Below are positions 41,709 through 58,576 of a stretch of DNA of 64,000 nt, in pieces. Source of the stretch: Burkholderia cenocepacia. Its GTDB lineage: Bacteria > Pseudomonadota > Gammaproteobacteria > Burkholderiales > Burkholderiaceae. The notes under the pieces were generated by a model that was not told the origin of the DNA, ran no database searches, and saw only the letters and a program-made list of their open reading frames with translations. Made by a program: the position numbers and the translations under genes. The stretch lies in the NCBI RefSeq assembly GCF_014211915.1, contig NZ_CP060040.1:1116001-1180000 (forward strand), read 5' to 3'. Positions within the stretch are counted from its first letter, which is position 1; every line of letters begins with the position of its first letter.

Positions 41709-41779
41709 GCCGGTGAGTCGATCGAAATCGATGCGAATCCCCTTCATGAATTCGCCCGATTACACCCGGGCGCACGCAC

Positions 41780-42889
<1,110 letters not shown>

Positions 42890-43225
42890 TTAGTGGCTGA
42901 TCATCCACGGCCGTCCCGCCGGCCGCTTGAGGCCGTCCGACGCCGTGCCTGCAAGCTTCGCCGCGCCGCCCGAGCAGCAACTGCAACCCGCGCGATGGCG
43001 CAGTGGCGGCCCGTCGCCGGACTGGCGCGGCGCGTGCGCGGCACGTTCGTTGGTCGCATGTGCGGCGCGGCGTGCGCCTCCCATCAGCGCCAGTGATGGC
43101 GCGCTGACGACGCGCGCGCCTTCGGCGCCGCAGTCGGGACAGCGGCTCGGTTTGTCGCGATCCGCGATGCGGCGCATGACGGAGAACGGCCCGCAGCTTG
43201 CGCATTCGAAGTCGTAGATTGGCAT
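42890..43225 (-). CDS. fmdB: FmdB-family zinc-ribbon protein
   Basis: 111 residues. N-terminal zinc ribbon MPIYDFECASCGPFSVMRRIADRDKPSRCPDC with two CxxC knuckles, followed by a His/Cys-rich tail (HRAGCSCCSGG). FmdB proteins accompany formamidase genes in Methylophilus and other bacteria and are thought to be regulatory; the biochemistry is unsettled. It lies between fmdA and amiE in the same operon. Confidence 0.83.
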   Translation of the reverse strand: MPIYDFECASCGPFSVMRRIADRDKPSRCPDCGAEGARVVSAPSLALMGGARRAAHATNERAAHAPRQSGDGPPLRHRAGCSCCSGGAAKLAGTASDGLKRPAGRPWMISH

Positions 43226-43262
43226 GACGGTCTCCTGTTCCTGCGTGATTTCAGTGCGTCGC

Positions 43263-44501
43263 TCACGCCTTCGCGAGATCCGGCGAACACGGCAGATCCA
43301 CCCCGCCCTGGATGTACCGGATCGGGCCGTCGGCATTCGGGCGAATGTCGAAGTCGAAGATCTGCGTGGGCAGCCACAAGGTCGCGCATGCGTTCGGAAT
43401 GTCCACCACGCCGCTGATATGCCCCTGCACCGGCGCGCAGCCCAGCAGCGAATACGCTTGCGCGCCCGAATAACCGAATTTCTTCAGATACTCGATGGCG
43501 TTCAGACACGCCTGGCGATACGCGGTGGTGACGTCGAGATAATGCTGGCCGCCCTGCTCGTCGACGGAAATGCCCTCGAAAATGAGGTAGTCGTTATAGG
43601 TCGGCGTGATCGGGCTGGGCTGAAAGACGGGGTTGCGGATACCGTATTTCGCCATGCCACCCTTGATGAGGTTCACGCGCATATGCACCCAGCCGGCCAT
43701 TTCGATCGCGCCGCAGAACGTGATCTCGCCGTCGCCCTGGCTGAAGTGCAGGTCGCCGACCGACAGGCCCGCGCCATCCACGTACACCGGGAAAAACACC
43801 TTCGAGCCGCGCGACAGATCCTTGATGTCGCAATTGCCGCCATGCTCGCGCGGCGGCACCGTGCGCGCGCCTTGCGCGGCGGCCTGGTCGCGCGCGTCGC
43901 CCGCGAGCTTGCCCATGTGCGCGGTGGCCGCGAACGGCGGATTCGCGAGCGGCGGCACGCGCTCGGGCGCGGTGGCGATCAGGCCGGTTTCGCGCGCGTT
44001 CCAGGTTTCCAGCAGAGTCGGATCGGGCAGGCAGCCGATCAGGCCGGGGTGAATCAGGCCCGCGAAATTCACGCCCGGAATATGGCGCGAGCTCGTGTAG
44101 ACACCATGAAAATCCCAGATCGATTTCTGCGCGCTGGGGAAATGATCGGTGAGAAAGCCGCCGCCGTTCGTCTTCGAAAAGAAGCCGTTGAAGCCCCATT
44201 GGCTGTCGGCCTTCGCGCCGATGTCGAGCAGGTCGACCACCAGCAGGTCGCCGGGCTCCGCGCCGTGCACGCCCACCGGGCCGGACAGGAAGTGCACGAT
44301 CGACAGGTCGATGTCGCGCACGTCGTCGGCGCTGTCGTCGTTCTTGATGAAGCCGCCGGTCCAGTCGTAGGTTTCGAGGATGAAATCGTCGCCGGGCTTG
44401 ACCCAGCAGGCCATCGGAATGTCGGGGTGCCAGCGATTGTGCACCTGTTCGTTTTCGTAGGCCGACTGGTTCAGATCGACCTTGATGAGAGTCTCGGGCA
44501 T
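43263..44501 (-). CDS. fmdA: Formamidase (FmdA/AmdA family)
   Basis: 412 residues of the acetamidase/formamidase family, starting MPETLIKVDLNQSAYENEQVHNRWHPDIP and including GAEPGDLLVVDLLDIG and LHFSQGDGEITFCGAIEM. It hydrolyses formamide to formate and ammonia in the cytoplasm. It follows the five ABC transporter genes and precedes fmdB, as in amide-utilisation operons. Confidence 0.92.
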   Translation of the reverse strand: MPETLIKVDLNQSAYENEQVHNRWHPDIPMACWVKPGDDFILETYDWTGGFIKNDDSADDVRDIDLSIVHFLSGPVGVHGAEPGDLLVVDLLDIGAKADSQWGFNGFFSKTNGGGFLTDHFPSAQKSIWDFHGVYTSSRHIPGVNFAGLIHPGLIGCLPDPTLLETWNARETGLIATAPERVPPLANPPFAATAHMGKLAGDARDQAAAQGARTVPPREHGGNCDIKDLSRGSKVFFPVYVDGAGLSVGDLHFSQGDGEITFCGAIEMAGWVHMRVNLIKGGMAKYGIRNPVFQPSPITPTYNDYLIFEGISVDEQGGQHYLDVTTAYRQACLNAIEYLKKFGYSGAQAYSLLGCAPVQGHISGVVDIPNACATLWLPTQIFDFDIRPNADGPIRYIQGGVDLPCSPDLAKA

Positions 44502-44563
44502 GACGTTCGCTCCTTGGGTTCGCGGATTGACAGACGGCGCGGCGCGCGAACGCCGCGCCGCGC

Positions 44564-45253
44564 TCAGACGGACAGGTACTCGCGGATGCGGTCGGTGTCG
44601 CCCGCATCGCGCGTACTTTGGTGCACGAAGCGCCCACCCTCGATCACGAACAGGCGGTCGGCCACGTCGAGCGCGAAGCTCAGCACCTGCTCCGACACGA
44701 CGATGGCGATATTGCGGCTCGTGCGAATCTGGTTGAGCGCCTTGGCGATGTCCTTGATGACGGACGGCTGGATGCCTTCGGTCGGCTCGTCAAGCAGCAG
44801 CACTTTCGGGTCGGTCGCGAGCGCACGCGCGATCGCGAGTTGCTGTTGCTGGCCGCCCGACAGATTGCCGCCCTTGCGCTTTCTCATGTCGAACAGCACC
44901 GGAAACAACGCGTAGAGCTCGTCGGGCACGCGTTGGCTCGGTGCGTTTTCGAGGCCCGTCTGGATGTTTTCCTCGACGGTCAGCGACGCGAAAATCTGCC
45001 GTCCTTGCGGCACGTAGCCGATGCCCTTCGACACGCGGCGGTAGCTCTCGTCCTTCGAGACGTCGGCGCCGGCCACGCGCACCGTGCCGCGATTGGCGGG
45101 CAGCATGCCGATCAGCGCCTTGAACAGCGTCGTCTTGCCCATGCCGTTGCGGCCCATCACGGCCACGCTTTCGCCTTGCGCGACGGCAAAGTCGATGCCG
45201 TGCAGCACCTCGCTCTGGCCGTAGCTGACGACGAGATCGTCGACTTCCAGCAT
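44564..45253 (-). CDS. urtE: Urea/short-chain amide ABC transporter ATP-binding protein UrtE
   Basis: 229 residues of the LivF-type branch. Walker A GRNGMGKTTL, signature LSGGQQQQLAIARAL, Walker B LLLDEPTEGIQPSV. The GIQPSVI after Walker B is typical of UrtE. It works with UrtD on the UrtBC membrane pair. Confidence 0.9.
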   Translation of the reverse strand: MLEVDDLVVSYGQSEVLHGIDFAVAQGESVAVMGRNGMGKTTLFKALIGMLPANRGTVRVAGADVSKDESYRRVSKGIGYVPQGRQIFASLTVEENIQTGLENAPSQRVPDELYALFPVLFDMRKRKGGNLSGGQQQQLAIARALATDPKVLLLDEPTEGIQPSVIKDIAKALNQIRTSRNIAIVVSEQVLSFALDVADRLFVIEGGRFVHQSTRDAGDTDRIREYLSV

Positions 45254-45287
45254 GATGTGTTCTCCGTGTTGTCGTCCGGTGGCGGAC

Positions 45288-46031
45288 TCAGTGGCCCAGG
45301 TAGACGTCGATCACGCGCGGGTCGGCCTGCACCTGCGCCATCGGGCCTTCCGCGAGAATCTTCCCCTGATGCATGACCGTGACCTTGTGTGCGATGCGCT
45401 CCACGAAAGCCATGTCGTGCTCGATCACGATCATCGAGCGATTGCGGCAGATGCGGTCGAGCAGTTCGGCCGTCAGTTCACGCTCGCGCACGCTCATGCC
45501 CGCGATCGGTTCGTCGAGCATCAGCAGTTCGGGGTCCTGCATGAGCAGCATGCCGATTTCGAGCCACTGTTTCTGGCCGTGCGAAAGCAGCCCGGCTTCC
45601 ATATCGAGTGTGGCGGAGAGGCCGATTTCATCGGCCACGTCGCGCACGCGATCGGCCACTTCGGTATCCTCGCGATAGGCGAGCGCGCCGAACACGCTGC
45701 GGCCGCGCGGAAACGACACTTCGAGGTTCTGCGCGACGCTCAGGTTTTCGTAGATCGACGGCGTCTGGAACTTGCGCCCGATCCCTTGACGCACGCGGCG
45801 GAACTCCGCGAGACGCGTGATTTCCTCGTTGCGGAACTTGATGCTGCCCGCCGTTTCCTTCGTCTTGCCGCAGATGAGATCGAGCAGCGTGGTCTTGCCC
45901 GCGCCGTTCGGGCCGATCACCACCCGCAGCTCGCCGCGTTCGAGATAGAGATTGAGCGAATCGATCGCCTTGAAGCCGTCGAACGACACGGTCAGGTCTT
46001 CGATCGCGAGCAGAAAGTCGGTATTGCTCAT
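45288..46031 (-). CDS. urtD: Urea/short-chain amide ABC transporter ATP-binding protein UrtD
   Basis: 247 residues, LivG-type. Walker A GPNGAGKTTLLDLICG, signature LSHGQKQWLEIGMLL (the LSHGQKQWLE form is typical of UrtD), Walker B LLMLDEPIAGMS. Three bases separate the urtC stop from its ATG. Confidence 0.9.
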   Translation of the reverse strand: MSNTDFLLAIEDLTVSFDGFKAIDSLNLYLERGELRVVIGPNGAGKTTLLDLICGKTKETAGSIKFRNEEITRLAEFRRVRQGIGRKFQTPSIYENLSVAQNLEVSFPRGRSVFGALAYREDTEVADRVRDVADEIGLSATLDMEAGLLSHGQKQWLEIGMLLMQDPELLMLDEPIAGMSVRERELTAELLDRICRNRSMIVIEHDMAFVERIAHKVTVMHQGKILAEGPMAQVQADPRVIDVYLGH

Positions 46032-46034
46032 GCT

Positions 46035-47204
46035 TCACGCCTCCTTGTTCGCCACGCCGAGCAGCCGCCGCACGCGCGGGCGCACATGCTCGTCGTAGAG
46101 GCCCGCCAGCCCGTTCGGAAACACCATCACCACGCCGATGAACATCGCCGCCATCAGATAGAGCCAGAGGTTCGGAAAGCTCTCCGAGAACCAGCTCTTG
46201 CCGAGATTGACGAGGATCGCGCCGTACACCGCGCCGACCAGCGACATGCGCCCGCCGATGGCCGCGTAGATCACCATTTCGATCGACGGCACGATGCCGA
46301 CGAACGACGGCGACATGAAACCCACCTGCAGCGTGAACATCGCGCCGCCGATGGCCGCGAGCATCGCCGCGAGACAGAACGCGAACACCTTGAACATCGC
46401 GACGTCGTAGCCCGAGAAGCGCACGCGGTCTTCCTTGTCGCGCATCGCGAGCAGCAGCGTGCCGAGCTTGCTGCGCTGAACCCAGCGGCCGACGAGCAGC
46501 GCACCGATCAACAGCGCGGCGTTCACGAAATACAGCACGAGCTTCGCGTGATCGGTGCGGATGTCCCAGCCGAGCAGCGTGCGCAGATCGGTGATGCCGT
46601 TCACGCCGCCCGTATAGCCTTGCTGGCCGATGATCAGCACCGAGAGGATCAGCGCGACCGCCTGCGTGATGATCGCGAAGTACACGCCGCCCACGCGCCG
46701 CTTGAACATCGCGTAGCCGATCACGAACGCGAGCGCCGTCGGCACGACGAGCACCGCGAGGATCGAGAACGGCAACGAGTGAAACGGCTTCCACCACGTG
46801 GGCAGCGCGGTGAGCTGGTTCCAGTCCATGAAGTCGGGAATGCCGGGCGTAGTCTGCGTGTGCGTGGCGGCCGGATCGGACGCCTCGAGCTTGAGAAACA
46901 TCGCCATCGCGTAACCGCCGAGGCCGAAGAACACGCCCTGGCCTAGACTGAGCACCCCGCCGTAGCCCCACGCGATCACGAGGCCGATCGCCACGAACGC
47001 ATAGGTCAGGTACTTGCCCATCAGGTTCAGGCGGAACGTGTCGAGCGCGAGCGGAAACACGACCACGATCAGCAGCGCGAGCAGCACGATGCCCGCGTAG
47101 CCCGACGCGTCGAGCCGCGCGACGCGAGCGCGCCAGCCGGCCGGCGGCGCGCCCGGGCGGGATCGCGGGGATACGGTGCCCGCCGCGGGTTGGATGGGTT
47201 CCAT
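46035..47204 (-). CDS. urtC: Urea/short-chain amide ABC transporter permease UrtC
   Basis: 389 residues, LivM-type permease with about ten helices; signature WGYGGVLSLGQGVFFGLGGYAMAMFLKLEAS in the N-terminal third. Of three candidate ATGs, 47204 is preferred because GGAGAG at 47211-47216 is correctly spaced for it. Inner membrane, paired with UrtB. Confidence 0.9.
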   Translation of the reverse strand: MEPIQPAAGTVSPRSRPGAPPAGWRARVARLDASGYAGIVLLALLIVVVFPLALDTFRLNLMGKYLTYAFVAIGLVIAWGYGGVLSLGQGVFFGLGGYAMAMFLKLEASDPAATHTQTTPGIPDFMDWNQLTALPTWWKPFHSLPFSILAVLVVPTALAFVIGYAMFKRRVGGVYFAIITQAVALILSVLIIGQQGYTGGVNGITDLRTLLGWDIRTDHAKLVLYFVNAALLIGALLVGRWVQRSKLGTLLLAMRDKEDRVRFSGYDVAMFKVFAFCLAAMLAAIGGAMFTLQVGFMSPSFVGIVPSIEMVIYAAIGGRMSLVGAVYGAILVNLGKSWFSESFPNLWLYLMAAMFIGVVMVFPNGLAGLYDEHVRPRVRRLLGVANKEA

Positions 47205-47259
47205 GTCCATCTCTCCAGTCGAATGAAGCTGTGAATGACGCGCGTTCATCGACGCACGC

Positions 47260-48177
47260 TTAAACGCGCCGCACCTTCGACGCGAACAGGCCCTGCGGGC
47301 GCAGCATGAGAATCACCACGACGGTGAGCAGCGTGAGCACGCGCGCTATCGATCCCGACAGGAAGAACTCGCTGATCGACTGCATCTGCGCGATGCCGAA
47401 CGCCGACGCCACGGTACCGAGCAAGCTGGCCGCGCCGCCGAACGTCACGACGAGAAACGAATCGACGATATAGAGCGAGCCGCTCGTCGGTCCCGTCGAG
47501 CCGATGGCCGTGAAGGCCGCGCCCGCCACGCCCGCGATGCCGCAGCCGATCGCGAACGTCATGCGATCGGTGCGCCGCGTGTTGATGCCCGCCGCGTTCG
47601 CCATCGGCCGGTTCGCGACCGTGGCGCGCACGCGCAAGCCCCAGCGCGAGCGATAGAGCGCGAGCAGCAGGCCGCCCGTCATCAGCAGCGCGAGGCCCAT
47701 CACGAACATGCCGCTCACCGGAATGTCGAGGCCGGGCGTGGGTTCCCACGAACCCATCAGCCAGTCGGGCAGCGCCGGACTCACTTCCTTCGGCCCGAAG
47801 GTCGAGCGGAACACCTGCTGCATGCCGAGGCTCAGGCCCCAGGTGGCGAGCAGCGTGTCGAGCGGCCGCTTGTAGAGATGGCGGATCAGCGCCCATTCGG
47901 CGAGCCAGCCCGCCGCGAAGGCCAGCGCGAACGCCGCGACAATCGCGAAGAAGAAATACACGGGCGTGAGCGCGTGCCAGACGTTCTGCGAAAACCACGA
48001 AAACAGGTAGACCGTATAGGCGCCGATCGTCATGAATTCGCCGTGCGCCATGTTGATCACGCCCATCTGGCCGAAGATCACGGCGAGCCCGAGCCCCATC
48101 AGGAGCAGGACGCTGAAGAGGCTCAGACCGGCGAAGCCCTGCATCAGCGTGATGTTGAAAATATCGGTAGCGGACAT
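47260..48177 (-). CDS. urtB: Urea/short-chain amide ABC transporter permease UrtB
   Basis: 305 residues, LivH-type permease (LMGLGLAVIFGQMGVINMAHGEFMTIGAYTVY). ATG 48177 follows GAGGAG; a longer form starting at 48204 lacks such a site. It lies 55 bp after urtA in the operon. Confidence 0.9.
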   Translation of the reverse strand: MSATDIFNITLMQGFAGLSLFSVLLLMGLGLAVIFGQMGVINMAHGEFMTIGAYTVYLFSWFSQNVWHALTPVYFFFAIVAAFALAFAAGWLAEWALIRHLYKRPLDTLLATWGLSLGMQQVFRSTFGPKEVSPALPDWLMGSWEPTPGLDIPVSGMFVMGLALLMTGGLLLALYRSRWGLRVRATVANRPMANAAGINTRRTDRMTFAIGCGIAGVAGAAFTAIGSTGPTSGSLYIVDSFLVVTFGGAASLLGTVASAFGIAQMQSISEFFLSGSIARVLTLLTVVVILMLRPQGLFASKVRRV

Positions 48178-48232
48178 CGAACGCTCCTCGCGCGGCGGCG
48201 TCATCGGCCGCCGCGCCGCTGCGGTTGACGGA

Positions 48233-49507
48233 TTACATGTAGCCCTTGGGGAACGGATTCGGCTGGATCGGCTGCTCCGACTGCGCGACGACCTTGAACT
48301 GGCCGTCCGCCTGGCCCTGGCCGATCAGCGAGCGGCTCCACAGATGGTGGTTCGCATCGACCTTCGCGTAGCCTTGCGGCGCGTTCGCCACTTCGATGCC
48401 GGCCGAATGCGCGACCACCTTGTCCACGTCGAAGCTGCCCGCGCGCTCGCACGCAGCCTTCCAGATCCACGGGCCGAGATAGGCGGCCTGGGTCACGTCG
48501 CCGATCACCGACTTCTGGCCGTAGCGCGCCTTGAACGCCGCGACGAACTTCTTGTTGTTGTCGTTATCGAGCGACTGGAAGTACTTCATCGACGAATAGA
48601 AGCCCGCGAAGTTGTCGCCGCCGATGCCGAGCACTTCGTCCTCGGTCACCGACAGCGTCAGCAGGAACTGCTTCTGCGGCGTGATGCCCGCGGCCTTGAG
48701 CTGCTTGTAGAACGCCACGTTCGAGCCGCCCACCACGGTCGCGAAGATGCAGTCCGGGCGCGCGAGCTTGATCTTGTTCATCAGCGACGCGAATTCGGTC
48801 GTGCCGAGCGGGTAATACTCCTCGCCCACCACCTTCGCGTGCAGATGCTGTTCGATATGACGGCGCGCGATCTTGTTGGACGTGCGCGGCCAGATGTAGT
48901 CGGAGCCGATCAGGAAGAAGGTCTTGGCCTTTTTCGTGTTCGAGGCCCAGTCGAGCGCCCAGACAATCTGCTGGGTCGCTTCCTGGCCCGTGTAGAACAC
49001 GTTCTTCGACTGTTCGAGGCCTTCGTAGAAGGTCGGGTAATACAGCAGGCCGTTGTCCTTCTCGAACACCGGCAGCACCGCCTTGCGCGAGGCCGAGGTC
49101 CAGCAGCCGAACACGGCCGCGACGTGGTCGTTCTCCAGCAGCTTCTTCGACTTTTCGGCGAAGGTCGGCCAGTCGGACGCGCCGTCTTCCTGAATGATCT
49201 GGATCTTGCGGCCCAGCACGCCGCCCATCGCGTTGATCTGTTCGATGGCGAGGCGCTCGGCCTGGATCGAACCCGTTTCGGAAATCGCCATCGTGCCCGT
49301 GGCCGAGTGCAGCTGGCCGACCGTCACCGTGGTGTCCGTGACCGCCAAGCGCGTGGTGTTGACCTTCGCCGTGGGCGGCGTCTGCGCAAACGCGCCGCGC
49401 GGCAGGCCCAGCGCCATCAGCGGCGCGGCGGCGAGACCGCCGAGCATTTTCCGGCGCAGCGGCGAAGGCATCCGGCCATCGTCATCGAATCGATCGTCTG
49501 CTGACAT
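48233..49507 (-). CDS. urtA: Urea/short-chain amide ABC transporter substrate-binding protein UrtA
   Basis: 424 residues, LivJ/AmiC-like periplasmic binding protein. A Tat-like signal (SPLRRKMLGGLAAAPLMALGLPRGAFA) precedes the mature protein (DTTVTVGQLHSATGTMAISETG), and the UrtA segments ASRKAVLPVFEKDNGLLYYPTFYEG are present. ATG 49507 follows AAGGAG. First gene of the operon. There is no urease or urea amidolyase here, while two amidases are encoded downstream, so short-chain amides are the likelier ligands. Confidence 0.9.
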   Translation of the reverse strand: MSADDRFDDDGRMPSPLRRKMLGGLAAAPLMALGLPRGAFAQTPPTAKVNTTRLAVTDTTVTVGQLHSATGTMAISETGSIQAERLAIEQINAMGGVLGRKIQIIQEDGASDWPTFAEKSKKLLENDHVAAVFGCWTSASRKAVLPVFEKDNGLLYYPTFYEGLEQSKNVFYTGQEATQQIVWALDWASNTKKAKTFFLIGSDYIWPRTSNKIARRHIEQHLHAKVVGEEYYPLGTTEFASLMNKIKLARPDCIFATVVGGSNVAFYKQLKAAGITPQKQFLLTLSVTEDEVLGIGGDNFAGFYSSMKYFQSLDNDNNKKFVAAFKARYGQKSVIGDVTQAAYLGPWIWKAACERAGSFDVDKVVAHSAGIEVANAPQGYAKVDANHHLWSRSLIGQGQADGQFKVVAQSEQPIQPNPFPKGYM

Positions 49508-49592
49508 CACGTTCTCCTTATCGGGTGCCCGGCGCGGGTCGCTGCGGGCTGGGTCGAGGTTGGACGCACTGTAGGAAGCCAATTTGAGGATC

Positions 49593-49616
49593 GGAATACG
49601 TCAATCGACGTATTCC
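49593..49616. promoter_or_regulatory. Perfect 10-4-10 inverted repeat between urtA and the transporter-kinase gene
   Basis: GGAATACGTC (49593-49602) and GACGTATTCC (49607-49616) with spacer AATC. It is centred about 97 bp upstream of urtA and 127 bp upstream of the kinase gene, a good position for an activator site acting on both promoters. The LuxR-type regulator at 53117 is the natural candidate to bind it. Confidence 0.65.
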
Positions 49617-49731
49617 CCGTGCGCGGGCTGGAATGTAATTTGCATTGCAGGGCGCTCCTGAGCGGCGTGGTCCGCCGTTGTGCCGTCCGCGCCCCGCTCG
49701 TGCCGCTTTCGCACCATTTCGGATCATCGTC

Positions 49732-52700
49732 ATGTCCCAGAGTCACCCGTCAGTGGGCGCGCCCGGTACGCAACGCATCGTCAAGGTGCGCCGCGACTAC
49801 AACGCCTGGGTCGGCGACGAAACCCTCGAGGACTATGCGCTGCGCTTCACGCCGCGCTCGTTCCGGCGCTGGTCGGAGCTGCGCGTGGCCAATACGGCGA
49901 TCGGCGCGGTGTCGTTTCTGGTGCTGGAAGCGATCGGCGGCAGTCTCGTCGTCAATTACGGCTTCACGAACGCGGTCTGGGCCATTGCGGCCGTCTCCGT
50001 GCTGATCTGGATCACCAGCTTGCCCATCAGCTATTACGCGGCGCGCTACGGCGTGGACATGGACCTGCTCACGCGCGGCGCGGGCTTCGGCTATATCGGC
50101 TCGACGGTCACGTCACTGCTGTATGCGGTGTTCACGTTCATTTTCTTCGCGCTCGAAGCGGCCATCATGTCGCTCGCGCTCCAGCTGTATTTCCATATTT
50201 CGCTGGCGATCGCCTACGTCGTGAGTTCGCTCGTGGTGATTCCGATCGTCATGTTCGGGATCACGCTGATCAACCGCCTGCAAAGCTGGACGCAGCCGCT
50301 GTGGCTCGTCCTGTTCGTGCTGCCCTACGCAGCCGTGCTGTGGCGCCATTCCGACCTGATCGCGCAATGGACCACCTTTGCGGGCTTCGCGCCGCAAGGC
50401 CGCGCTTTCAGCCTGATCGCGTTCGGTCAAGCGTCGACGGTCGTGTTCGCGCTGATCGTGCAGGTAGGTGAACAAGTGGACTATCTGCGCTTCCTGCCGC
50501 CGCTCACCGCGAAGAACCGCACGCGCTGGTGGTTCGCGTTGCTCTCGACGGGGCCGGGCTGGATCGTCCCCGGCGCGCTCAAGATGCTGGGCGGCGCATT
50601 GCTCGCCTTCATCGCGCTGCAGTACGAAGTCGATGCCGTCCACGCCACCCAGCCTACGCAGATGTACCTCGTCGCCTATCATCTGCTGCTCGATCCGTTG
50701 GGGCTCGCGAGCTGGGCGCTGCCCGCGATGACGCTGTTCGTGATCGTCTCGCAGTTGAAGATCAACGTGACCAATGCCTATGCGGGCTCGCTCGCGTGGT
50801 CCAATTTCTTCGCGCGGCTCACGCACAGCCATCCGGGCCGCGTGGTATGGCTCGTGTTCAACGTCATGATCGCGTTGCTGCTCGTCGAAATGGGCGTGTT
50901 CGATGCGATCGCCAAGGTGCTGTCGCTCTACGCGAACATCGCGATCGCGTGGATCGGCGCGTTGTTCGCCGATCTCGTCATCAACAAGCCGCTCGGCTAT
51001 AGCCCGCGACACATCGAATTCAAGCGAGCGCATCTCTACGACGTGAACCCCGTGGGCGTCGGCGCGATGCTGATCGCGGCCGCCGTCGCGATGCTCGCGC
51101 ACAGCGGCCTGTTCGGCGTGCTCGCCCAGGCGATGTCGTCGTTCATCGCGTTCGGTGCGGCGTTCGCATGCGCGCCGCTGCTCGCGGTACTCACCCGCGG
51201 CCGCTATTACATTGCCCGCGCCGCGCAACCGACCGGCGACGCCACTTCGCTGCGCTGCGCGATTTGCGAAAACACCTTCGAACCCGACGATACGGCGCAT
51301 TGCCCGGCCTATGGCGGCACGATCTGCTCGCTGTGCTGCTCGCTCGATTCGCGCTGCCACGATCGCTGCAAGCCGCACGCACGCTTCGCGTCGCAGGCCG
51401 ACCGCGCGCTGCATCGCGTGCTGCCGGGCGCGCGGCTCGGCCCCGCCGCGCTGCGCCTCATTCACTATGCGAGCCTCGTGCTGGCCATGCTCGCGGTGCT
51501 GGGCAGCGTGCTCTATCTGATCTGGGCGCAGAGCGCGACTTCGATGCGCGCCGCCGGGCCATCGATCGCTCATGCGCTTTCGGGCAGCTTTCTGAATATC
51601 TTTCTCGCGCTCTCGCTGGTGGGCTGCATCGCGGCCTGGTGGTTCGTGCTGGAGCGCGAAAACCGCCGCGTCACGCAGGAAGAGTCGCAGCGGCAAAACG
51701 AATTGCTGATGCTCGAAATCGACGCGCATCAGAAAACCGACGCGGCGCTCAAGCGCGCGACCGCCGCCGCGGAATCGGCCAACCAGGCCAAGAGCCGTTA
51801 CGTGTCCGGCTTGAGCCACGAGCTGCGCACGCCGCTGAACAGCATTCTCGGCTACGCACAATTACTGCTGCAGGCGAAGGAAGAACTCACGCCCATGCGC
51901 TACAACGCCGTGCGCACGATCCATCGCAGCGGCGAGCATCTGCTCGCGCTCGTCGACGGCCTACTCGACATCGCGCGCATCGAGGCGGGCAAGCTTCAGT
52001 TGAACGTCGCCAAGGTATCCCTCGCCGATTTCGTCGCGCACCTGACGTCGATGCTGCGTCCGCAGGCGCTCGAAAAGGCGCTCGCCTTCGACGTGCAAAC
52101 AGTCGGTCGGCTGCCCGCCACCGTGCGCACCGACCAGAAGTGCATGAGCCAGATCCTCACCAACCTGATCGGCAATGCGATCCGCTTCACGTCGAGCGGC
52201 ACGATCACGCTGCGCGTCAGCCACGTGCTCGATACGCTCAAATTCGAGGTGATCGATACCGGCCCCGGCATCCCGCCAGCCGAACTGGAACGCCTGTTCC
52301 TGCCGTTCGAACGCGGCGAAGCGGCCCATGCGTACGATCACGGCGCCGGTCTCGGGCTCACGATCTGCCGCCTGCTCACGCAAGCGCTCGGCGGCAGCCT
52401 GGAAGTGGACAGCGAAGTCGGGCACGGCACGCGCTTCGTGGTGCGCCTGTTCGCCCCGGCCGTCGACGCGGCGGCCGAAACCCACGCCGAACTCGCGTCG
52501 ATTCGCGGCTATACGGGCGCGCGCCGCACCATTCTCGTGGTGGACGACCTCGACGATCAGCGCGACATCGTCGTGCAATTGCTCACGCCGCTCGGCTTCG
52601 ACGTCGCTGAAGCCGCCAGCGGCACCGATGCGCTGCGCTGGCTGGCGATGCACACGGCCGACGCGATCATCATGGATATTTCGATGCCGCTGATGGACGG

Positions 52701-53154
52701 TTACGAAACCAGCCGCCTGATCTCCGAGAATCAGTTGTCGAACGCGCCCATCGTGCTGCTCTCCGCGAACGCATTCGCCGACGACCGCGATCGGGCGAGC
52801 GCGACCGGATGCAAGGGCTATCTGGTGAAACCGCTGCAGGTGAATCTGCTGCTCGACAAGCTCGCGCAACTGCTGGCGCTCGACTGGATCGCATCGGACG
52901 CCGGCGCCAGCGCGCGACCGGCGGCGACACAGCCGCCCACGCCCGCCGTGTGGCCACGCGAGCTCATCGAACATCTGCATGCGCATCTCGAAGTCGGCTA
53001 CGTACAGGGCGTGATCGAAGCGCTCGACGCTGCCCGCGAGGCCCGGCCCGGATTGCGGGATCAAATCGACGCGTTGCGCTCGTTGGCGGAACGTTTTCAG
53101 CTAAGGGAACTCGAGCATGAACTTGACCGACTCGCGCGCGGCGCGAACGCGTGA
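49732..53154 (+). CDS. NCS1-type transporter fused to hybrid histidine kinase/receiver
   Basis: 1140 residues. Residues about 40-490 form an NCS1 (cytosine/purine/allantoin permease)-like membrane domain. A cysteine-rich segment follows at 509-546 (Cys 509, 512, 524, 532, 535, 536, 542, 546), then two more helices (about 578-598 and 620-640) and a coiled coil. HisKA has His696 in SHELRTPL; the HATPase has NLIGNAIRFT, DTGPGI and GAGLGLT. A receiver spans about 932-1050 with Asp982 and Lys1033, then a helical C-terminal domain without an Hpt histidine. The kinase part resembles the NahK/ErcS group. Divergent from the amide operon, it probably senses amides or urea and signals to the LuxR-type regulator at 53117. 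Start ATG 49732 begins the NCS1 N-terminus. Confidence 0.88.
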   Translation: MSQSHPSVGAPGTQRIVKVRRDYNAWVGDETLEDYALRFTPRSFRRWSELRVANTAIGAVSFLVLEAIGGSLVVNYGFTNAVWAIAAVSVLIWITSLPISYYAARYGVDMDLLTRGAGFGYIGSTVTSLLYAVFTFIFFALEAAIMSLALQLYFHISLAIAYVVSSLVVIPIVMFGITLINRLQSWTQPLWLVLFVLPYAAVLWRHSDLIAQWTTFAGFAPQGRAFSLIAFGQASTVVFALIVQVGEQVDYLRFLPPLTAKNRTRWWFALLSTGPGWIVPGALKMLGGALLAFIALQYEVDAVHATQPTQMYLVAYHLLLDPLGLASWALPAMTLFVIVSQLKINVTNAYAGSLAWSNFFARLTHSHPGRVVWLVFNVMIALLLVEMGVFDAIAKVLSLYANIAIAWIGALFADLVINKPLGYSPRHIEFKRAHLYDVNPVGVGAMLIAAAVAMLAHSGLFGVLAQAMSSFIAFGAAFACAPLLAVLTRGRYYIARAAQPTGDATSLRCAICENTFEPDDTAHCPAYGGTICSLCCSLDSRCHDRCKPHARFASQADRALHRVLPGARLGPAALRLIHYASLVLAMLAVLGSVLYLIWAQSATSMRAAGPSIAHALSGSFLNIFLALSLVGCIAAWWFVLERENRRVTQEESQRQNELLMLEIDAHQKTDAALKRATAAAESANQAKSRYVSGLSHELRTPLNSILGYAQLLLQAKEELTPMRYNAVRTIHRSGEHLLALVDGLLDIARIEAGKLQLNVAKVSLADFVAHLTSMLRPQALEKALAFDVQTVGRLPATVRTDQKCMSQILTNLIGNAIRFTSSGTITLRVSHVLDTLKFEVIDTGPGIPPAELERLFLPFERGEAAHAYDHGAGLGLTICRLLTQALGGSLEVDSEVGHGTRFVVRLFAPAVDAAAETHAELASIRGYTGARRTILVVDDLDDQRDIVVQLLTPLGFDVAEAASGTDALRWLAMHTADAIIMDISMPLMDGYETSRLISENQLSNAPIVLLSANAFADDRDRASATGCKGYLVKPLQVNLLLDKLAQLLALDWIASDAGASARPAATQPPTPAVWPRELIEHLHAHLEVGYVQGVIEALDAAREARPGLRDQIDALRSLAERFQLRELEHELDRLARGANA

Positions 53155-54160
53155 CGTGCACACCACGATCGCGGCCTCCCCGATCGCCGGCGACCCGGCC
53201 GCGTGGCTGCGCGAAGGGCCCATGATCCTGATCGTCGACGACACGCCGGAGAACCTCGCCTTTCTTTCCGACACGCTGCAGGCGCACGGCTACGTGGTGA
53301 TCGTCGCGCTGTCCGGCGAGGACGCGCTCAAACGCCTCGCGCGCGTGACGCCCGACGTGGTGTTGCTCGACGCGATGATGCCCGACATGGACGGCTTCGA
53401 AACATGCGTGCGGATCAAGCAGGACGGACGCCACGAGCATCTGCCCGTCATCTTCATGACTGCGTTGACGGAGAGCGAACATGTCGTACGCGGCTTTCGT
53501 GTAGGCGGCATCGATTACGTGACCAAGCCGGTGCAGCCCGAGGAATTGTGCGCACGCATCGGCGCCCATGTACGGCGTTCACGTGCGCAGTTGTACGCGG
53601 AGGCGGCACTGTCGCTCGACACGCGCGCGGCGCTGATCGTCGGCGCGGACGGCACGATTCGGTGGCAGAGCCCGCAGGCTGCGCGTCATATCGCTGCATA
53701 CACGACCGCGCATGACGCCCCCGCCGATGCCCGGCAACCCACGACCGCACGCGATACCGACGCGCCGACGCAGCTGCCCGCGCTACTGCGCACGTGGTTC
53801 GTCGACTGGCTCGCGCGCGGCGCCCCGGGCGACGCCGTGCACGAATTCAGCTCGGGCCCGATACGCCGCTCGGCCAGCGCGACGCGCGGCCCGGAACCGG
53901 GCGAATGGATCGTGATCCTCAAGGAAAGAGACGACACCGTGCATTGCAATGCACTCGCCGAACGCTTCGGCTTGACCATGCGGGAGGCCGAAGTGCTGCT
54001 CTGGGTGTCGCACGGCAAGACGAACCGCGATATCGGCGACATTCTGGGCATCGCCGCGCGCACGGTGAACAAGCATCTCGAACACCTGTTCCGCAAGCTC
54101 CATGTCGAGACCCGTGCGGGCGCGGCCGCCGCGGCGATCAAGATGCTCGAGCGCACGTGA
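53117..54160 (+). CDS. LuxR/FixJ-type response regulator, partner of the transporter-kinase
   Basis: 347 residues. Receiver at about 36-155 (Asp41, Asp42, phosphoacceptor Asp85, Lys137), a less conserved PAS-like middle (ALIVGADGTIRWQSPQAARHI) and a C-terminal LuxR helix-turn-helix (LTMREAEVLLWVSHGKTNRDIGDILGIAARTVNKHLEHLFRKLHVETRAGAA). It overlaps the kinase gene by 38 bp; AAGGGA before the ATG at 53117 supports this start over an ATG at 53222. Proposed activator of the amide operon via the 49593-49616 repeat. Confidence 0.87.
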   Translation: MNLTDSRAARTRDVHTTIAASPIAGDPAAWLREGPMILIVDDTPENLAFLSDTLQAHGYVVIVALSGEDALKRLARVTPDVVLLDAMMPDMDGFETCVRIKQDGRHEHLPVIFMTALTESEHVVRGFRVGGIDYVTKPVQPEELCARIGAHVRRSRAQLYAEAALSLDTRAALIVGADGTIRWQSPQAARHIAAYTTAHDAPADARQPTTARDTDAPTQLPALLRTWFVDWLARGAPGDAVHEFSSGPIRRSASATRGPEPGEWIVILKERDDTVHCNALAERFGLTMREAEVLLWVSHGKTNRDIGDILGIAARTVNKHLEHLFRKLHVETRAGAAAAAIKMLERT

Positions 54161-54816
54161 CAGGGCGGCATCGCCGGATCGTCAACTTGCCGCACCCTTA
54201 TCGGGCCGCCCGCTGGGGCATAATTTCGTAAACTTGATCTTTTACTCTGATTCTGGATAATTGTTCATGCCTCGGGCGACATGCGTCCTGTAGCGCGCGC
54301 CACGAGGCCATAGCCCGCCAGCCCCTCTCGGCTGGCCTCCCCTGTTTCGGCGCCTGACCTGTTGGTCCGCCGAAATACCGTCACGATTCCACCGGGCAAC
54401 GGCGGAATCGTTCGCCTGCCACGCAGGCCGTGAAGCGCCAGAGGAGACACTGGCGCCTTGCTCCAAAGTGCGGCTCCAGATCGTGCTCAACCAGAGGAAT
54501 CGTCGCGCCTTCGACCCAAACCGGTTTGGACGGGCCGTGAGCGATTTCCCTACTCGGTGACCGACATGACGAAGCAATCACCCCCCGTACAAACCGGAAG
54601 TCCCTCCTGTCGGCGCACTCCATGTGCCCGACGCGGCGGCACGCCGTCCGGCCACGTCCACGCGCTCGGCTGAGCGCCCGTCCGCGACTTCCCGCTCCGC
54701 GACTTCAGTGACGCGTTGCCGCACGTGCGGCAACGCCTGTTACCGGAGTGGGCACATGCCGTCACGTTACGCGTTCGTTCGCCCGTGCGACGAGCCGCAC
54801 CACAAGGAAAACCGTC
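54161..54816. other. Gene-poor stretch, possible remnant DNA
   Basis: 656 bp without a gene I can support. Several short open frames exist on the minus strand (for example 54381-54623, product beginning MECADRRDFRF), but none has a ribosome site or a recognisable family. A GCCAGCC/GGCTGGC hairpin is near 54320. The right end carries a 24-bp palindrome and the promoter of the polyol cluster. The segment may be a remnant of a mobile or deleted gene. Confidence 0.4.
54713..54736. promoter_or_regulatory. 24-bp perfect palindrome upstream of polyol cluster
   Basis: GCGTTGCCGCAC (54713-54724) followed directly by its reverse complement GTGCGGCAACGC (54725-54736). It lies 80 bp before the MFS start. 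It could be an operator for a dimeric repressor or, as RNA, a leader hairpin. No T-run follows, so a terminator is less likely. Confidence 0.5.
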
Positions 54817-56232
54817 ATGGCTTCTGATTCCGCCCTTCCCGACACACCCGCGGCCCGCCCCCGGCCCACCCCGTCCGCCTACATGCGCACCGTCGCATCG
54901 ATCGCGGCGATCGCCGGCGGGCTCTATGGATACGACACCGGCATCATCTCGGGCGCCCTGCCCCTCATCGCGCGAGACTTCGGCCTCGACTACCGCGCAC
55001 AGGAGCTCGTCGCCGCGGCGATCCTGCTCGGCGCGGTGATCGGTGCGCTGGCCGGCACCCGCATGTCGGCCGCATTCGGACGCCGCAAGTCCATTACGAT
55101 CGTCTCGACGATCTATGCGGCCGGCGTGCTGGCTGCCGCCCTCTCGCCCGACGCGTGGTCCCTTGCCGCTTCCCGGCTCGTGCTCGGATTCGCGGTCGGC
55201 GGCTCGACGCAGATCGTGCCGACCTACATCGCGGAACTCGCGGAGCCGGACAAGCGCGGCCGCCTGGTGACCTACTTCAACGTCTCGATCGGCATCGGCA
55301 TCCTGCTCGCGGCCCTGATCGGCGTCGCGGGCAACGACCTGTTTTCCTGGCGCGCGATGATCGGTATCGCGGTCATCCCGTCGGTCATCCTGATGGTTGG
55401 CATGACCCGACTGCCGCGCAGCCCGCGCTGGCTCGTCGAGCAGGATCGCATCGCCGACGCGCATGGCGAGTTGTCGAAGGTGCGGGAATCCCAAGCGGCC
55501 GTCCGACACGAGATTGCCGATATTCGGGACGTGGTCGAGCGGCAGCAGGACGGCGCGACATCGGGGTGGCGCACGATGCGCGAGCCCTGGGTACGCCCCG
55601 CTCTCGTTGCCGGCCTCGGCGTCGCCGCGTTCACCCAGCTCAGCGGCATCGAGATGATGATCTATTACACGCCGACGTTCCTTCGCGACGCGGGGTTCGG
55701 CGCGTCGGCATCGCTCTGGGCCGCACTCGGCGTCGCCGTCACCTATCTCGTGATGACCTTCATCGGCAAGCTGACCGTCGACCATGTCGGCCGCCGCACG
55801 CTCAGCCTCGCGACGCTGCCCGTCGCGGCAGCCAGCCTCGTGCTGCTTGGCTGCCTGCTGCGGGGCGACTTCGTTTTGCCCATGCAGCAACTGTGGATCG
55901 TCATCTGCCTGATCGCGTTCATGGTGTTCAACGCCGGCGGTATCCAGGTCATCGGCTGGCTGACGGGCGCGGAAATCTACCCCGTCGCGATTCGCAACCA
56001 GGCCACCGGCGCGCACGCCGCAATGCTATGGGGCTCGAACCTCTTGCTGACCGGCACTGCGCTGACCGTGACCAAATGGCTCGGTGTCGGCGGTGCGATG
56101 TGGGCGTACGCGGGTCTCAACGCACTCGCATGGGTATTTATCTATTCGATGGTGCCGGAAACGCGCGGTCGCAGCCTCGAGGACATCGAACGCGCATTGA
56201 AGCGCGGAACGTTCGGGCCGCGCCATTCATGA
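54817..56232 (+). CDS. MFS sugar/polyol transporter (sugar porter family)
   Basis: 471 residues, twelve helices. Sugar-porter signatures: GGLYGYDTGIISGALPLI in helix 1, GRRKS after helix 2, LPRSPRWLVEQ in place of PESPRWL, and VPETRGRSLEDIE at the C-terminus. Proton symport of a monosaccharide or sugar alcohol is expected. The two downstream genes point to a polyol such as arabitol or mannitol. ATG 54817 is favoured by an AAGG site. Confidence 0.87.
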   Translation: MASDSALPDTPAARPRPTPSAYMRTVASIAAIAGGLYGYDTGIISGALPLIARDFGLDYRAQELVAAAILLGAVIGALAGTRMSAAFGRRKSITIVSTIYAAGVLAAALSPDAWSLAASRLVLGFAVGGSTQIVPTYIAELAEPDKRGRLVTYFNVSIGIGILLAALIGVAGNDLFSWRAMIGIAVIPSVILMVGMTRLPRSPRWLVEQDRIADAHGELSKVRESQAAVRHEIADIRDVVERQQDGATSGWRTMREPWVRPALVAGLGVAAFTQLSGIEMMIYYTPTFLRDAGFGASASLWAALGVAVTYLVMTFIGKLTVDHVGRRTLSLATLPVAAASLVLLGCLLRGDFVLPMQQLWIVICLIAFMVFNAGGIQVIGWLTGAEIYPVAIRNQATGAHAAMLWGSNLLLTGTALTVTKWLGVGGAMWAYAGLNALAWVFIYSMVPETRGRSLEDIERALKRGTFGPRHS

Positions 56233-56287
56233 TCGGACACGGTCAAGCCAGTCACGTCCATCCTGCTTTCTCATCACGGAAACCGAC

Positions 56288-57016
56288 ATGAACGAACTTA
56301 CTGCCACACGTCGACTTTCGGATCATGCGCTGATCAGCGATTGCGACGGCGTGCTCGTCGATAGCGAAGCCGTCGCCGAACGCATCGTCGTGACTCGCCT
56401 CGAGCACCTCTGGGGGCTCGCCGGCCTTCGCGACGTCATACGTCCCCTGCTCGGCATGCGAGCCGAGCAATTGCTGCGCATGGTCGCGACCATCGTCGAC
56501 CGGCCGCTCGACGACGACACGGTCGAGGCGATTCGCGCGGACATCCACGCAAACGCGGTGAATGCGCCGGCCATCGACGGCGTGCGCGACGCGTTCGCCG
56601 CCATCCCGCTCGTCAAGGCGTGCGCCAGCAACAGCGATCTTGCCTATGTGCGCAGCGTGGTCGACCGGATCGGCCTGGCCGACCTGTTCGGCGAACGCTT
56701 GTTCACGGCCGACCAGGTGCCCTCGCCGAAGCCCGCGCCCGACGTCTATCTGGCCGCCGCCCGTCGCATGCATGTCGCGCCCGAACGGTGCATCGTCGTC
56801 GAAGACAGCGCGACGGGTACGGCCGCCGCGATGGCCGCCGGCATGACCGTACTCGGCTTCGTGGGCGCCGCGCACGCGGCACGAACGCAGACGGACAAGC
56901 TGCACGCCGCAGGCGCGTCCGTCGTCTTCGACGACATGGCCGCGCTGCCGTCGCTCGTCGAGCGCTGGCTGCGACACATGCAGGACACGACGCCCGCTTG
57001 GCGCGTACGCGCCTGA
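56288..57016 (+). CDS. HAD-superfamily sugar phosphatase-like hydrolase
   Basis: 242 residues, HAD subfamily IA. Motif I DCDGVLVDSEA with Asp18 and Asp20, motif III lysine in SPKPAPDVYLAAARRM, motif IV VVEDSATG. It resembles phosphatases such as YieH or beta-phosphoglucomutase-like enzymes. In this cluster it may dephosphorylate a sugar or polyol phosphate. 31 bp separate it from the dehydrogenase. Confidence 0.83.
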   Translation: MNELTATRRLSDHALISDCDGVLVDSEAVAERIVVTRLEHLWGLAGLRDVIRPLLGMRAEQLLRMVATIVDRPLDDDTVEAIRADIHANAVNAPAIDGVRDAFAAIPLVKACASNSDLAYVRSVVDRIGLADLFGERLFTADQVPSPKPAPDVYLAAARRMHVAPERCIVVEDSATGTAAAMAAGMTVLGFVGAAHAARTQTDKLHAAGASVVFDDMAALPSLVERWLRHMQDTTPAWRVRA

Positions 57017-57046
57017 CCTTCCCCGAACGAGAAACACCTCGCGATC

Positions 57047-58576
57047 ATGAACGACAACGCATCCCCTCCGGCGCGCGAAGACGACACGCGCCATCCGCTC
57101 GCCAATGCAACCCTCGGACGCGCGGCGCCGCACGTCGCCGTTCCTGCCTACGACCGCCATCGCCTGACGGCAGGCATCGCGCATATCGGCGTCGGCAACT
57201 TCCATCGCGCCCATCAGGCGCGCTACATCGATCATGTGCTGCATCTGCCCGGTCACGAAAAATGGGCAATATGCGGGATCGGACTGGGTAGCGGCCCGGC
57301 CTCGGTCGCCAAGGCCGACGCGCTTCGCGCGCAGGATTGCCTCTATACGCTGACGGAGTTCTCGAGCGACGGCACGACGGTCGTGCGCGTCATCGGTGCA
57401 ATGATCGAGTATCTGCACGCACCGGCCGACCCGGAAGCCGTACTGACCCGGCTTGCCGATCCGGCGATCCGGATCGTATCGCTGACCATCACGGAAGGCG
57501 GTTACAACCTCGACGAGACGACCGGCGCATTCCGGTTCGATACGCCCGACGTCGCACACGATCTGCTGGGCGGACCGCCCCGTACCGCGTTCGGGTTCAT
57601 CGTCGAAGCGCTCAGACGGCGTCGAGCCGCCAACGTACTGCCCTTCACCGTGATGTCCTGCGACAATCTGCGCGGTAACGGCGATACCGCGCGGCGCGCG
57701 GTGCTCGATTTCGCACGGGCGACCGACGTCGATCTCGCCGCCTGGATCGAGCGTTACGTCGCGTTCCCGAACAGCATGGTCGACCGGATCGCGCCGCAGG
57801 TGACGGACGCGATCCGCCTGCGCGCCAACCGGTTGTCAGGCTTCGACGACACGGCGCCCGTCGTTGCCGAAACGTTCTCGCAATGGGTGGTCGAGGACAG
57901 CTTCAGCGCCGGCCGCCCGGCATTCGACGCAGCGGGCGTCGAATTGCGCGACGACGTCCATGCGTACGAGGCCATGAAGGGGCGCATGCTGAACGCTTCC
58001 CACATGTTGCTCGCTTACCCGGCGATTCTGCTCGGACATCGCTTCGTCCACGACGCCATGGCCGATCGCGATCTCGCGGCGCTGCTCGACATCTTCCTTA
58101 CCCGGGACGTCGGCTCGATCCTCACGCTACCGCATGGCGTGTCCGCACGCGCCTATGCCCGCGATACGCTCGCGCGCTTCCGCAACGCCGCACTGGGCGA
58201 TCAGTTGCTGCGCGTCGCGCACGACGGCGCGTCGAAGATCCCGGTGTTTCATGAAAAGACCATCGGGGCATTGATCGCGCGTCACGGCGACATGCGCCGT
58301 GAAGCGCTGCTGCTGGCCTGCTTCCAGCATTACCTGAAGGGTGTCGACGATCTCGGCAACGCGTTCGCCGTCAGTGAGCCGCAATTCGAGGCAGCGGATC
58401 TCGAGCGCGTGCGAAGCGGCGCGCCGCTCGCGATCCTCGATTCAAAGCCGTTCGCCCCGCTCGGGCTCGCTTCCAACCCGGGGTTCGTCGAGCTATTCCG
58501 CACGATGCAGGCGGCCGTGGCGACACGCAGGACGCGCGACGCCATCCGGCTGGCGCTCGATGCTTCAGATACCTGA
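57047..58576 (+). CDS. Mannitol/arabinitol-type long-chain polyol dehydrogenase
   Basis: 509 residues, the size of mannitol 2-dehydrogenase and D-arabinitol 4-dehydrogenase. N-terminal cofactor region HIGVGNFHRAHQARYIDHVL; conserved segment SLTITEGGYNLDETTGAF; catalytic block KGRMLNASHMLLAYP with the family Lys, Asn and His. It oxidises a polyol to a ketose with NAD(P). The exact polyol is not readable. The 3' end overlaps the convergent FUSC gene by 12 bp. Confidence 0.88.
   Translation: MNDNASPPAREDDTRHPLANATLGRAAPHVAVPAYDRHRLTAGIAHIGVGNFHRAHQARYIDHVLHLPGHEKWAICGIGLGSGPASVAKADALRAQDCLYTLTEFSSDGTTVVRVIGAMIEYLHAPADPEAVLTRLADPAIRIVSLTITEGGYNLDETTGAFRFDTPDVAHDLLGGPPRTAFGFIVEALRRRRAANVLPFTVMSCDNLRGNGDTARRAVLDFARATDVDLAAWIERYVAFPNSMVDRIAPQVTDAIRLRANRLSGFDDTAPVVAETFSQWVVEDSFSAGRPAFDAAGVELRDDVHAYEAMKGRMLNASHMLLAYPAILLGHRFVHDAMADRDLAALLDIFLTRDVGSILTLPHGVSARAYARDTLARFRNAALGDQLLRVAHDGASKIPVFHEKTIGALIARHGDMRREALLLACFQHYLKGVDDLGNAFAVSEPQFEAADLERVRSGAPLAILDSKPFAPLGLASNPGFVELFRTMQAAVATRRTRDAIRLALDASDT

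What the first reader, a model, noticed from the sequence alone, without database searches (positions are those of the whole stretch)
49732..53154. NCS1 transporter fused to a hybrid histidine kinase beside an amide operon
One frame encodes an NCS1-type permease domain, extra helices, HisKA/HATPase, a receiver and a C-terminal helical domain. Transporter-kinase fusions are known for the SSS family (CbrA type); an NCS1 version tied to amide uptake and hydrolysis genes is far less described. It implies a sensor that reads substrate binding or flux through its transporter domain.
Basis: partly seen in the sequence, partly recalled or inferred. Interest (0 to 1): 0.75.

Follow-up and report, generated by a model that had tools for sequence, protein, structure and literature searches.

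The report
Transporter-like sensor for amides and urea
This bacterium carries a sensor protein that joins a transporter-like membrane domain to a signalling kinase; its gene neighbours and a shared DNA switch site suggest that it turns on genes for taking up and breaking down small amides, while close relatives sit beside urea genes, a little-described way for bacteria to notice these nitrogen sources.

Summary
Window 49732-53154 (+) is one 1140-residue frame: LeuT-fold domain, cysteine-rich module, two helices, HisKA, HATPase, receiver, C-terminal tail. Pfam misses the first domain, but profile comparison and an AlphaFold model place it nearest to NCS1 transporters (CodB, Mhp1). It is divergent from urtABCDE-fmdA-fmdB-amiE and followed by a LuxR-type response regulator.

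The link recurs: 115 of 130 fetched loci of relatives hold amide or urea genes. The sensor tree splits amide-linked from urea-linked copies with 2 changes (amide label shuffled: mean 24.8). A palindrome, TACGTC-N4-GACGTA, occurs once in the 7.6-Mb genome, between sensor and urtA. TACGT-N6-ACGTA lies within 600 bp of 38 of 48 amide-linked named sensors and in 0 of 9 fmdA loci without a nearby sensor. Of 79 sensor genes, 50 have a sigma-54-like site upstream.

Best reading: an NCS1-like counterpart of the SLC5 sensor kinases CbrA/CrbS that induces amide or urea operons. My searches found no description of this fusion. Ligand, direct sensing, any transport, phosphotransfer, DNA binding and the cysteine module's role are inferred. 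New variant of a known kind.

The parts
49732..53154 (+). Sensor gene: NCS1-like domain - Cys-rich module - two helices - HisKA - HATPase - receiver - tail (1140 aa)
   Evidence: Translation; Pfam.
49810..51216 (+). NCS1-like LeuT-fold domain, residues about 27-495
   Evidence: hhalign; AlphaFold model; Foldseek and VIA-align matches CodB, Mhp1.
51256..51369 (+). Cysteine-rich module, residues 509-546, eight invariant cysteines
   Evidence: Alignments; no significant fold match.
51442..51708 (+). Two long helices, residues 571-659
   Evidence: Model secondary structure.
51787..52449 (+). HisKA (686-753) and HATPase_c (801-906); phospho-acceptor by position H696
   Evidence: Pfam; conserved in 79 full-length sequences.
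52531..52863 (+). Receiver domain, residues 934-1044; acceptor by position D982
   Evidence: Pfam; conservation.
53117..54160 (+). Response regulator, receiver plus LuxR-type (GerE) domain; the true start may lie later, the receiver begins at residue 37
   Evidence: Pfam; a homologue starts near the sensor stop in 71 of 75 named loci with room.
49593..49616 (.). Perfect inverted repeat GGAATACGTC-AATC-GACGTATTCC, candidate operator
   Evidence: the only TACGTC-N4-GACGTA in the own genome.
49629..49643 (+). Sigma-54-like promoter site TGGAATGTAATTTGC towards the sensor gene
48233..49582 (-). urtA, ABC-transporter binding protein; true start probably inside the frame, the family match begins at residue 86
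   Evidence: TIGR03407 530 bits, cut-off 492.75.
47260..48204 (-). urtB
   Evidence: TIGR03409 above cut-off.
46035..47249 (-). urtC
   Evidence: TIGR03408 above cut-off.
45288..46031 (-). urtD
   Evidence: TIGR03411 above cut-off.
44564..45253 (-). urtE
   Evidence: TIGR03410 above cut-off.
43263..44501 (-). fmdA, formamidase
   Evidence: NF045496 768 bits, cut-off 500.
42890..43336 (-). fmdB-type zinc-ribbon protein
   Evidence: TIGR02605 and NF053663 above cut-off.
41780..42886 (-). Aliphatic amidase (amiE)
   Evidence: NF009802 716 bits, cut-off 427.

Best explanation
The gene encodes a transporter-shaped receptor kinase. A divergent NCS1-like (LeuT-fold) domain in the membrane binds a small amide or urea (ligand inferred). 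The conformational change passes through the cysteine-rich module and two helices to a HisKA/HATPase core with an attached receiver (inferred). The phosphoryl group reaches the LuxR-type response regulator encoded next to it (inferred). That regulator binds the palindrome TACGTC-N4-GACGTA between sensor and urtA (site shown, binding inferred) and activates urtABCDE-fmdA-fmdB-amiE (inferred). Transcription of the sensor itself from a sigma-54-type promoter would tie its production to nitrogen shortage (site shown, use inferred). A sister branch does the same job for urea transport and urease genes.
For: Fold and profile. Neighbours: amide or urea genes in 115 of 130 fetched loci; sensor present in 33 of 40 genomes with fmdA and 17 of 260 without (Fisher p 1e-24, no correction for kinship). 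Tree: amide against urea label, 2 changes; amide label shuffled mean 24.8, 0 of 500 as low. Regulator next door in 71 of 75. Site: one copy in the own genome; near 38 of 48 amide-linked named sensors; 52 sites at spacing 6, none at 3-5 or 7-9; absent from 9 of 9 fmdA loci without a nearby sensor, present in 20 of 29 amide loci with one in the order sample. Sigma-54-like site upstream of 50 of 79 sensors against 75 of 1580 random pieces. The closest stand-alone permease found lies with a hydrolase of the nitrilase family, an AmiC/UrtA-like binding protein and an AmiR-type regulator (one genome). Precedent: CrbS/CrbR (PMC5715377, passages); M. methylotrophus fmd cluster induced by formamide and urea, repressed by ammonia (PMC10781810, passages).
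Against: No expression, binding or transport data. Fifteen of 130 loci show neither gene set (some are on short contigs). Ten of 48 amide-linked named loci lack the strict site near the sensor, as do 9 of 29 anywhere in the order-sample amide loci. In the urea branch the site is a variant seen first and counted afterwards: 8 of 17 within 600 bp, 3 more at about 1.2 kb. Five order-sample loci outside the amide list also hold the strict site. Seven genomes have fmdA without the sensor, so the sensor is not needed for every such operon. PF02133 is not reached by the sensor domain.
Confidence: 0.72

Rival explanations
1. The protein measures transport flux or the coupling ion rather than bound ligand: the NCS1-like domain is a working symporter and its turnover sets kinase activity.
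For: The whole transporter fold is kept and is the best conserved part (67% mean pairwise identity against 55% for the kinase). CbrA transports histidine (PMC7918813, passages).
Against: The operon already supplies an ABC importer. A lysine at 343 stands in the helix where, from recall, Mhp1 binds Na+; the stand-alone relatives have K or R there (alignment only). Neither point excludes flux sensing.
Confidence: 0.15
2. The main input is the cysteine-rich module (zinc, nickel or redox state), and the membrane domain is an anchor or an independent transporter.
For: Eight invariant cysteines between membrane core and kinase; weak RING/FYVE/treble-clef resemblance; a related hybrid kinase without the NCS1 domain keeps a cysteine-rich N-terminus beside a related regulator (L214).
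Against: The membrane core is more conserved than the rest, and neighbours track amide and urea use, not metal uptake, which was not searched for.
Confidence: 0.08
3. The ligand is a nucleobase, hydantoin or other ureide, as for known NCS1 transporters, and amide genes are induced as part of a wider nitrogen-scavenging response.
For: Known NCS1 matches carry cytosine or hydantoins (entry titles). Amide and urea branches share nearly all conserved membrane-core residues, which fits one common ligand.
Against: Amide or urea genes recur beside the sensor; purine- or hydantoin-catabolism genes were not searched for. Published inducers of the M. methylotrophus cluster are formamide and urea (PMC10781810, passages).
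Confidence: 0.05

Closest known systems
CrbS (MxtR)/CrbR: SLC5-STAC hybrid histidine kinase and LuxR-type regulator for acetate use
   Same: Transporter domain fused to a hybrid kinase with a receiver; LuxR-type partner; an inverted repeat before the promoter is needed for activation (PMC5715377 and PMC7918813, passages).
   Different: SLC5 instead of NCS1-like domain; STAC and PAS domains instead of the cysteine-rich module and helices; acetate instead of amide/urea genes.
CbrA transceptor (SLC5-STAC histidine kinase)
   Same: Transporter domain as input of a histidine kinase (PMC13022988, PMC7918813, passages).
   Different: SLC5 fold member binding histidine; no receiver; partner CbrB.
Ammonium sensor kinase (Amt-histidine kinase, Kuenenia)
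   Same: Transporter-type domain of a nitrogen source fused to a kinase (PMC5764959, start of abstract).
   Different: Amt fold and ammonium, not NCS1-like.
NCS1 transporters CodB and Mhp1
   Different: 15-17% identity; stand-alone transporters; the sensor domain is below Pfam detection.
fmdCABDEF of Methylophilus methylotrophus
   Different: The passage names a putative positive regulator in the cluster but no sensor kinase; I did not look at that genome.
Unnamed hybrid kinase and regulator beside urt genes in Ectopseudomonas guguanensis G3 and Dechloromonas aromatica
   Same: Probably members: hybrid kinase and LuxR regulator beside urtABCDE (PMC13296017, passages); 1131-aa kinase and 308-aa regulator beside UrtA and urease (PMC2907700, passages).
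   Different: Listed without domain analysis or function; I did not compare the sequences.

Membership tests
NCS1 / PF02133 (Transp_cyt_pur) | Match to PF02133 above the gathering score | tested here: not met
   No match in P0001 nor in 65 relatives at E 1. Hence filed as NCS1-like, not as a PF02133 member.
NCS1 / PF02133 (Transp_cyt_pur) | LeuT-type fold closest to NCS1 structures | tested here: met
NCS1 / PF02133 (Transp_cyt_pur) | Sequence-profile kinship | tested here: met
   E 2.5e-6 against five NCS1 proteins; APC 0.064, NCS2 0.4; a stand-alone relative passes PF02133.
NCS1 / PF02133 (Transp_cyt_pur) | Cation-coupled transport of nucleobases or related compounds | not testable with these tools
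   No transport assay.
SLC5/STAC histidine kinases (CbrA, CrbS) | SLC5 (SSS) domain | tested here: not met
SLC5/STAC histidine kinases (CbrA, CrbS) | STAC domain | tested here: inconclusive
   No Pfam match in residues 500-680; a cysteine-rich module is there instead; no STAC profile was compared.
SLC5/STAC histidine kinases (CbrA, CrbS) | Transporter domain fused to a histidine kinase with an adjacent regulator | tested here: met
Hybrid sensor histidine kinase | HisKA, HATPase_c and receiver with conserved His and Asp | tested here: met
   Pfam; conservation over 79 sequences.
Amide/urea (urt-fmd) operon | UrtABCDE, FmdA and amidase above curated cut-offs | tested here: met
   TIGR03407 to TIGR03411, NF045496 and NF009802 above cut-off.

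The most novel reading that the evidence does not exclude
A widespread, undescribed class of receptor kinases in which an NCS1-like domain has become a receptor for the amide/urea group, with a RING/FYVE-like two-metal cysteine module between transporter and kinase that adds a second (metal or redox) input, so that amide or urea induction is gated by metal state. One family would serve two branches (amide and urea), each with its own variant of one palindromic operator.
Probability: 0.25. Interest if true: 0.82.

Novelty: new variant of a known kind. Interest (0 to 1): 0.62.

Why it matters
Induction of an amide operon by formamide and urea is in print, but the passages I saw name no sensor kinase for it. 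It extends transporter-fused kinases from SLC5 and Amt to an NCS1-like fold. Paired amide and urea branches make the question 'binding or flux?' testable with chimeras, and the system could yield urea or formamide biosensors.

Tried and rejected
Rejected: chance neighbourhood; APC or NCS2 identity of the membrane domain; the palindrome as a property of fmd/urt operons in general (0 of 9 fmdA loci without a nearby sensor) or of base composition (no hits at spacings 3-5 and 7-9). The SSS profile control is weak because only one SSS sequence was used and single NCS1 sequences also score poorly; structure decides there.

Led nowhere: Rfam on 41500-54500 (no match), tRNA scan (none), sigma-70 and terminator scan of 49300-49800 (none found), identity of the cysteine-rich module (best Foldseek E 0.15; 1 of 47 members hit a treble-clef Pfam model at E 0.00044; a PDB match at E 0.00059 had no stretch passing on its own), more stand-alone permeases (of 50 genomes with a match in 398, only G486, the source of the query, has a stand-alone one; the rest are long sensor frames). 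Literature searches for the fusion or its function gave no description; two genome papers list a plain hybrid kinase and regulator beside urt genes. The library lacks most subscription journals.

Limits of counts: the order-sample tally is 50 loci from 48 genomes (own genome not counted; the fragment in G164 not fetched; G204 and G264 twice). Some genomes may be in both samples (L163 and G179 share contig length and place). L140 (partial match) was left out of the tree and; L151, cut by a contig end, was left out of the full-length alignment. Tree labels were set by hand: L133 and L170, which the script counts as urea, were labelled 'both' because amide-type urtD/E lie at their edge. The tree is a quick one with very long outgroup branches, so its root is unsure. 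The relaxed pattern was chosen after seeing urea-branch sites. Of the nine fmdA loci, two (L250, L251) come from genomes with a sensor or sensor fragment elsewhere, and two are short (L244 3 kb, L249 11 kb); one (L245) holds a match to the relaxed pattern only.
Full report
What is there. Window 49732-53154 (+) encodes one protein of 1140 residues. Pfam finds HisKA (686-753), HATPase_c (801-906) and a receiver (934-1044), but nothing in the first 680 residues. The NCBIfam matches shown are kinase models below their cut-offs (best 25 of 147). The minus strand upstream carries urtA, urtB, urtC, urtD, urtE, fmdA, an fmdB-type zinc ribbon and an aliphatic amidase, all above cut-off. The next gene downstream (53117-54160) is a receiver-GerE response regulator. 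The genome has 7.6 Mb in 4 contigs, and no other match there reaches the N-terminal 600 residues. The nearest named relatives of the sensor domain are Burkholderia sp. MS389 and B. seminalis, 98% identical.

Between the NCS1-like core and two long helices lies a stretch with eight invariant cysteines (509, 512, 524, 532, 535, 536, 542, 546; 21 and 65 sequences). Pfam matches of its 47 members are weak and scattered (Prok-RING_1 in 6, best E 0.02; FYVE in 2; one treble-clef model at 0.00044 in 1). A model of the module alone is middling (pLDDT 70), and its best PDB matches, among them U-box/RING, PHD, FYVE and LIM domains, are not significant (best E 0.15). Zinc binding is likely by analogy, not shown.

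Distribution. In 300 genomes of the order, the own one among them, 50 have the N-terminal domain at E 1e-20, some as fragments (35 of 134 genera). In 398 genomes of the phylum 68 have a match at E 1e-3, part of them only weak stand-alone permeases or short stretches.

Neighbours. Of 50 loci of the order sample (48 genomes) 19 hold amide-type genes, 13 urea-type (urea-type urtA/urtB and/or urease genes), 10 both and 8 neither. Of the 80 named loci the numbers are 47, 23, 3 and 7. Some loci with neither lie on short contigs. Urease identity rests on family matches in locus L137 (UreC, UreE, UreG by NCBIfam, UreF and UreJ by Pfam), used as queries elsewhere. In the same 300 genomes fmdA occurs in 40; 33 of these have the sensor, against 17 of the other 260 (Fisher p 1e-24, not corrected for kinship). 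A response regulator homologous to the window's starts near the sensor's stop in 71 of 75 named loci with room.

Tree. In a quick tree of 79 named domains and the window, amide- and urea-linked sensors separate with two changes. Against all other rows the amide label needs 2 changes (shuffled mean 24.8) and the urea label 8 (shuffled mean 18.8), in both cases with 0 of 500 shuffles as low. Of the seven loci with neither kind of gene, six fall in the large urea branch and one (L145) beside a small urea-linked group. The outgroup branches are very long, so the root is unsure. Some genomes have two sensors; in L167 two stand in tandem, the first beside amide-type urt genes, the second in the urea branch. 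At 85% within each branch only eight positions separate 48 amide from 27 urea-branch proteins: three conservative ones in the membrane core (177, 255, 411), F/Y at 516, and four in kinase and receiver, of which L744T and D939N are not conservative. The NCS1-like core is the best conserved part (67% mean pairwise identity; Cys-rich 63%, kinase 55%, receiver 45%, helices 35%, tail 31%).

A DNA site. The region between urtA and the sensor holds a perfect inverted repeat, 49593-49616, core TACGTCAATCGACGTA; TACGTCNNNYGACGTA is kept in all nine closest loci aligned. TACGTCNNNNGACGTA occurs once in the own genome, here. TACGT-N6-ACGTA lies within 600 bp of the sensor start in 38 of 48 amide-linked named loci, against 1 of 21 urea-linked; 17 further sites lie elsewhere in the named loci. 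The 48 amide-linked loci hold 52 such sites and none with spacing 3-5 or 7-9. In ten Pseudomonas-type loci one of the sites lies 5.2-5.9 kb upstream of the sensor start, near the urtE-fmdA boundary. Nine fmdA loci without a nearby sensor have none, although three of them (L243, L246, L248) hold urtABCDE and fmdA; in the order sample 20 of 29 amide loci with a sensor have it (Fisher p 3e-4). Five order-sample loci outside that amide list also have it. Before urea-type urt genes a variant with TACGC half-sites appears: 8 of 17 within 600 bp of urtA and 3 more at about 1.2 kb, counted after the variant had been seen. The site thus goes with the sensor and regulator rather than with the operon, as a regulator's site should. 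Binding is inferred.

Nitrogen control. TGGAATGTAATTTGC at 49629-49643 fits the sigma-54 consensus (recalled) apart from one base. A GG-N10-GC site scoring at least 10 of 12 lies within about 300 bp upstream of 50 of 79 sensors, against 75 of 1580 random pieces of the same loci; near relatives share sites, so the 50 are not independent.

What is known. SLC5-STAC kinases (CbrA, CrbS) are the model for transporter-fused sensors; CrbR, a LuxR-type regulator, needs an inverted repeat just before the RpoD promoter (PMC5715377, PMC7918813, PMC13022988, passages). An Amt-kinase fusion senses ammonium (PMC5764959, start of abstract). The M. [quoted passage not shown] the passage names a putative regulator but no sensor kinase (PMC10781810, passages). 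Genome papers list an unnamed hybrid kinase and regulator beside urt genes (PMC13296017, PMC2907700, passages). My searches found no description of the NCS1 fusion or its function.

Mechanism. Shown by computation: architecture, predicted fold, neighbours, branch structure, conserved palindrome, sigma-54-like sites. Inferred: ligand (small amide or urea), direct sensing by the NCS1-like domain, phosphotransfer to the neighbouring regulator, binding and activation at the palindrome. Whether the domain still transports is open; a lysine at 343, in the helix where Mhp1 binds Na+ (recalled), is at most a hint that Na+ coupling was lost.

Verdict. A real and widespread NCS1-like counterpart of the SLC5 sensor kinases, tied to amide and urea use, with a candidate operator: a new variant of a known kind.

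Noticed in passing
window 49629-49643: Sigma-54-like promoter site towards the sensor gene; similar sites upstream of 50 of 79 relatives, which suggests nitrogen control of the sensor.
   Followed up: partly
L206:7999-12980: Stand-alone NCS1 permease, closest of those found to the sensor domain, in a cluster with a nitrilase-family hydrolase, an AmiC/UrtA-like binding protein and an AmiR-type regulator.
   Followed up: partly
L214:4856-6709 and 6811-7704: Hybrid kinase of 618 aa with a cysteine-rich N-terminus but no NCS1 domain, beside a regulator 37% identical to the window's and an iron-type alcohol dehydrogenase.
   Followed up: no
L167:3183 and L167:10001: Two sensors in tandem in one genome, the first beside amide-type urt genes, the second in the urea branch of the tree.
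   Followed up: no
window 40489-41658: Outer-membrane porin gene (Porin_4) facing the amidase end of the operon; the M. methylotrophus cluster also includes a porin.
   Followed up: no
window 54748-58576: Sugar-type MFS transporter, HAD hydrolase and mannitol-type dehydrogenase cluster just downstream of the regulator; looks unrelated.
   Followed up: no
window 28051-33959: RND-type efflux pump (AcrB family) and outer-membrane efflux protein, with an OmpR-type regulator gene at 38280-39026.
   Followed up: no
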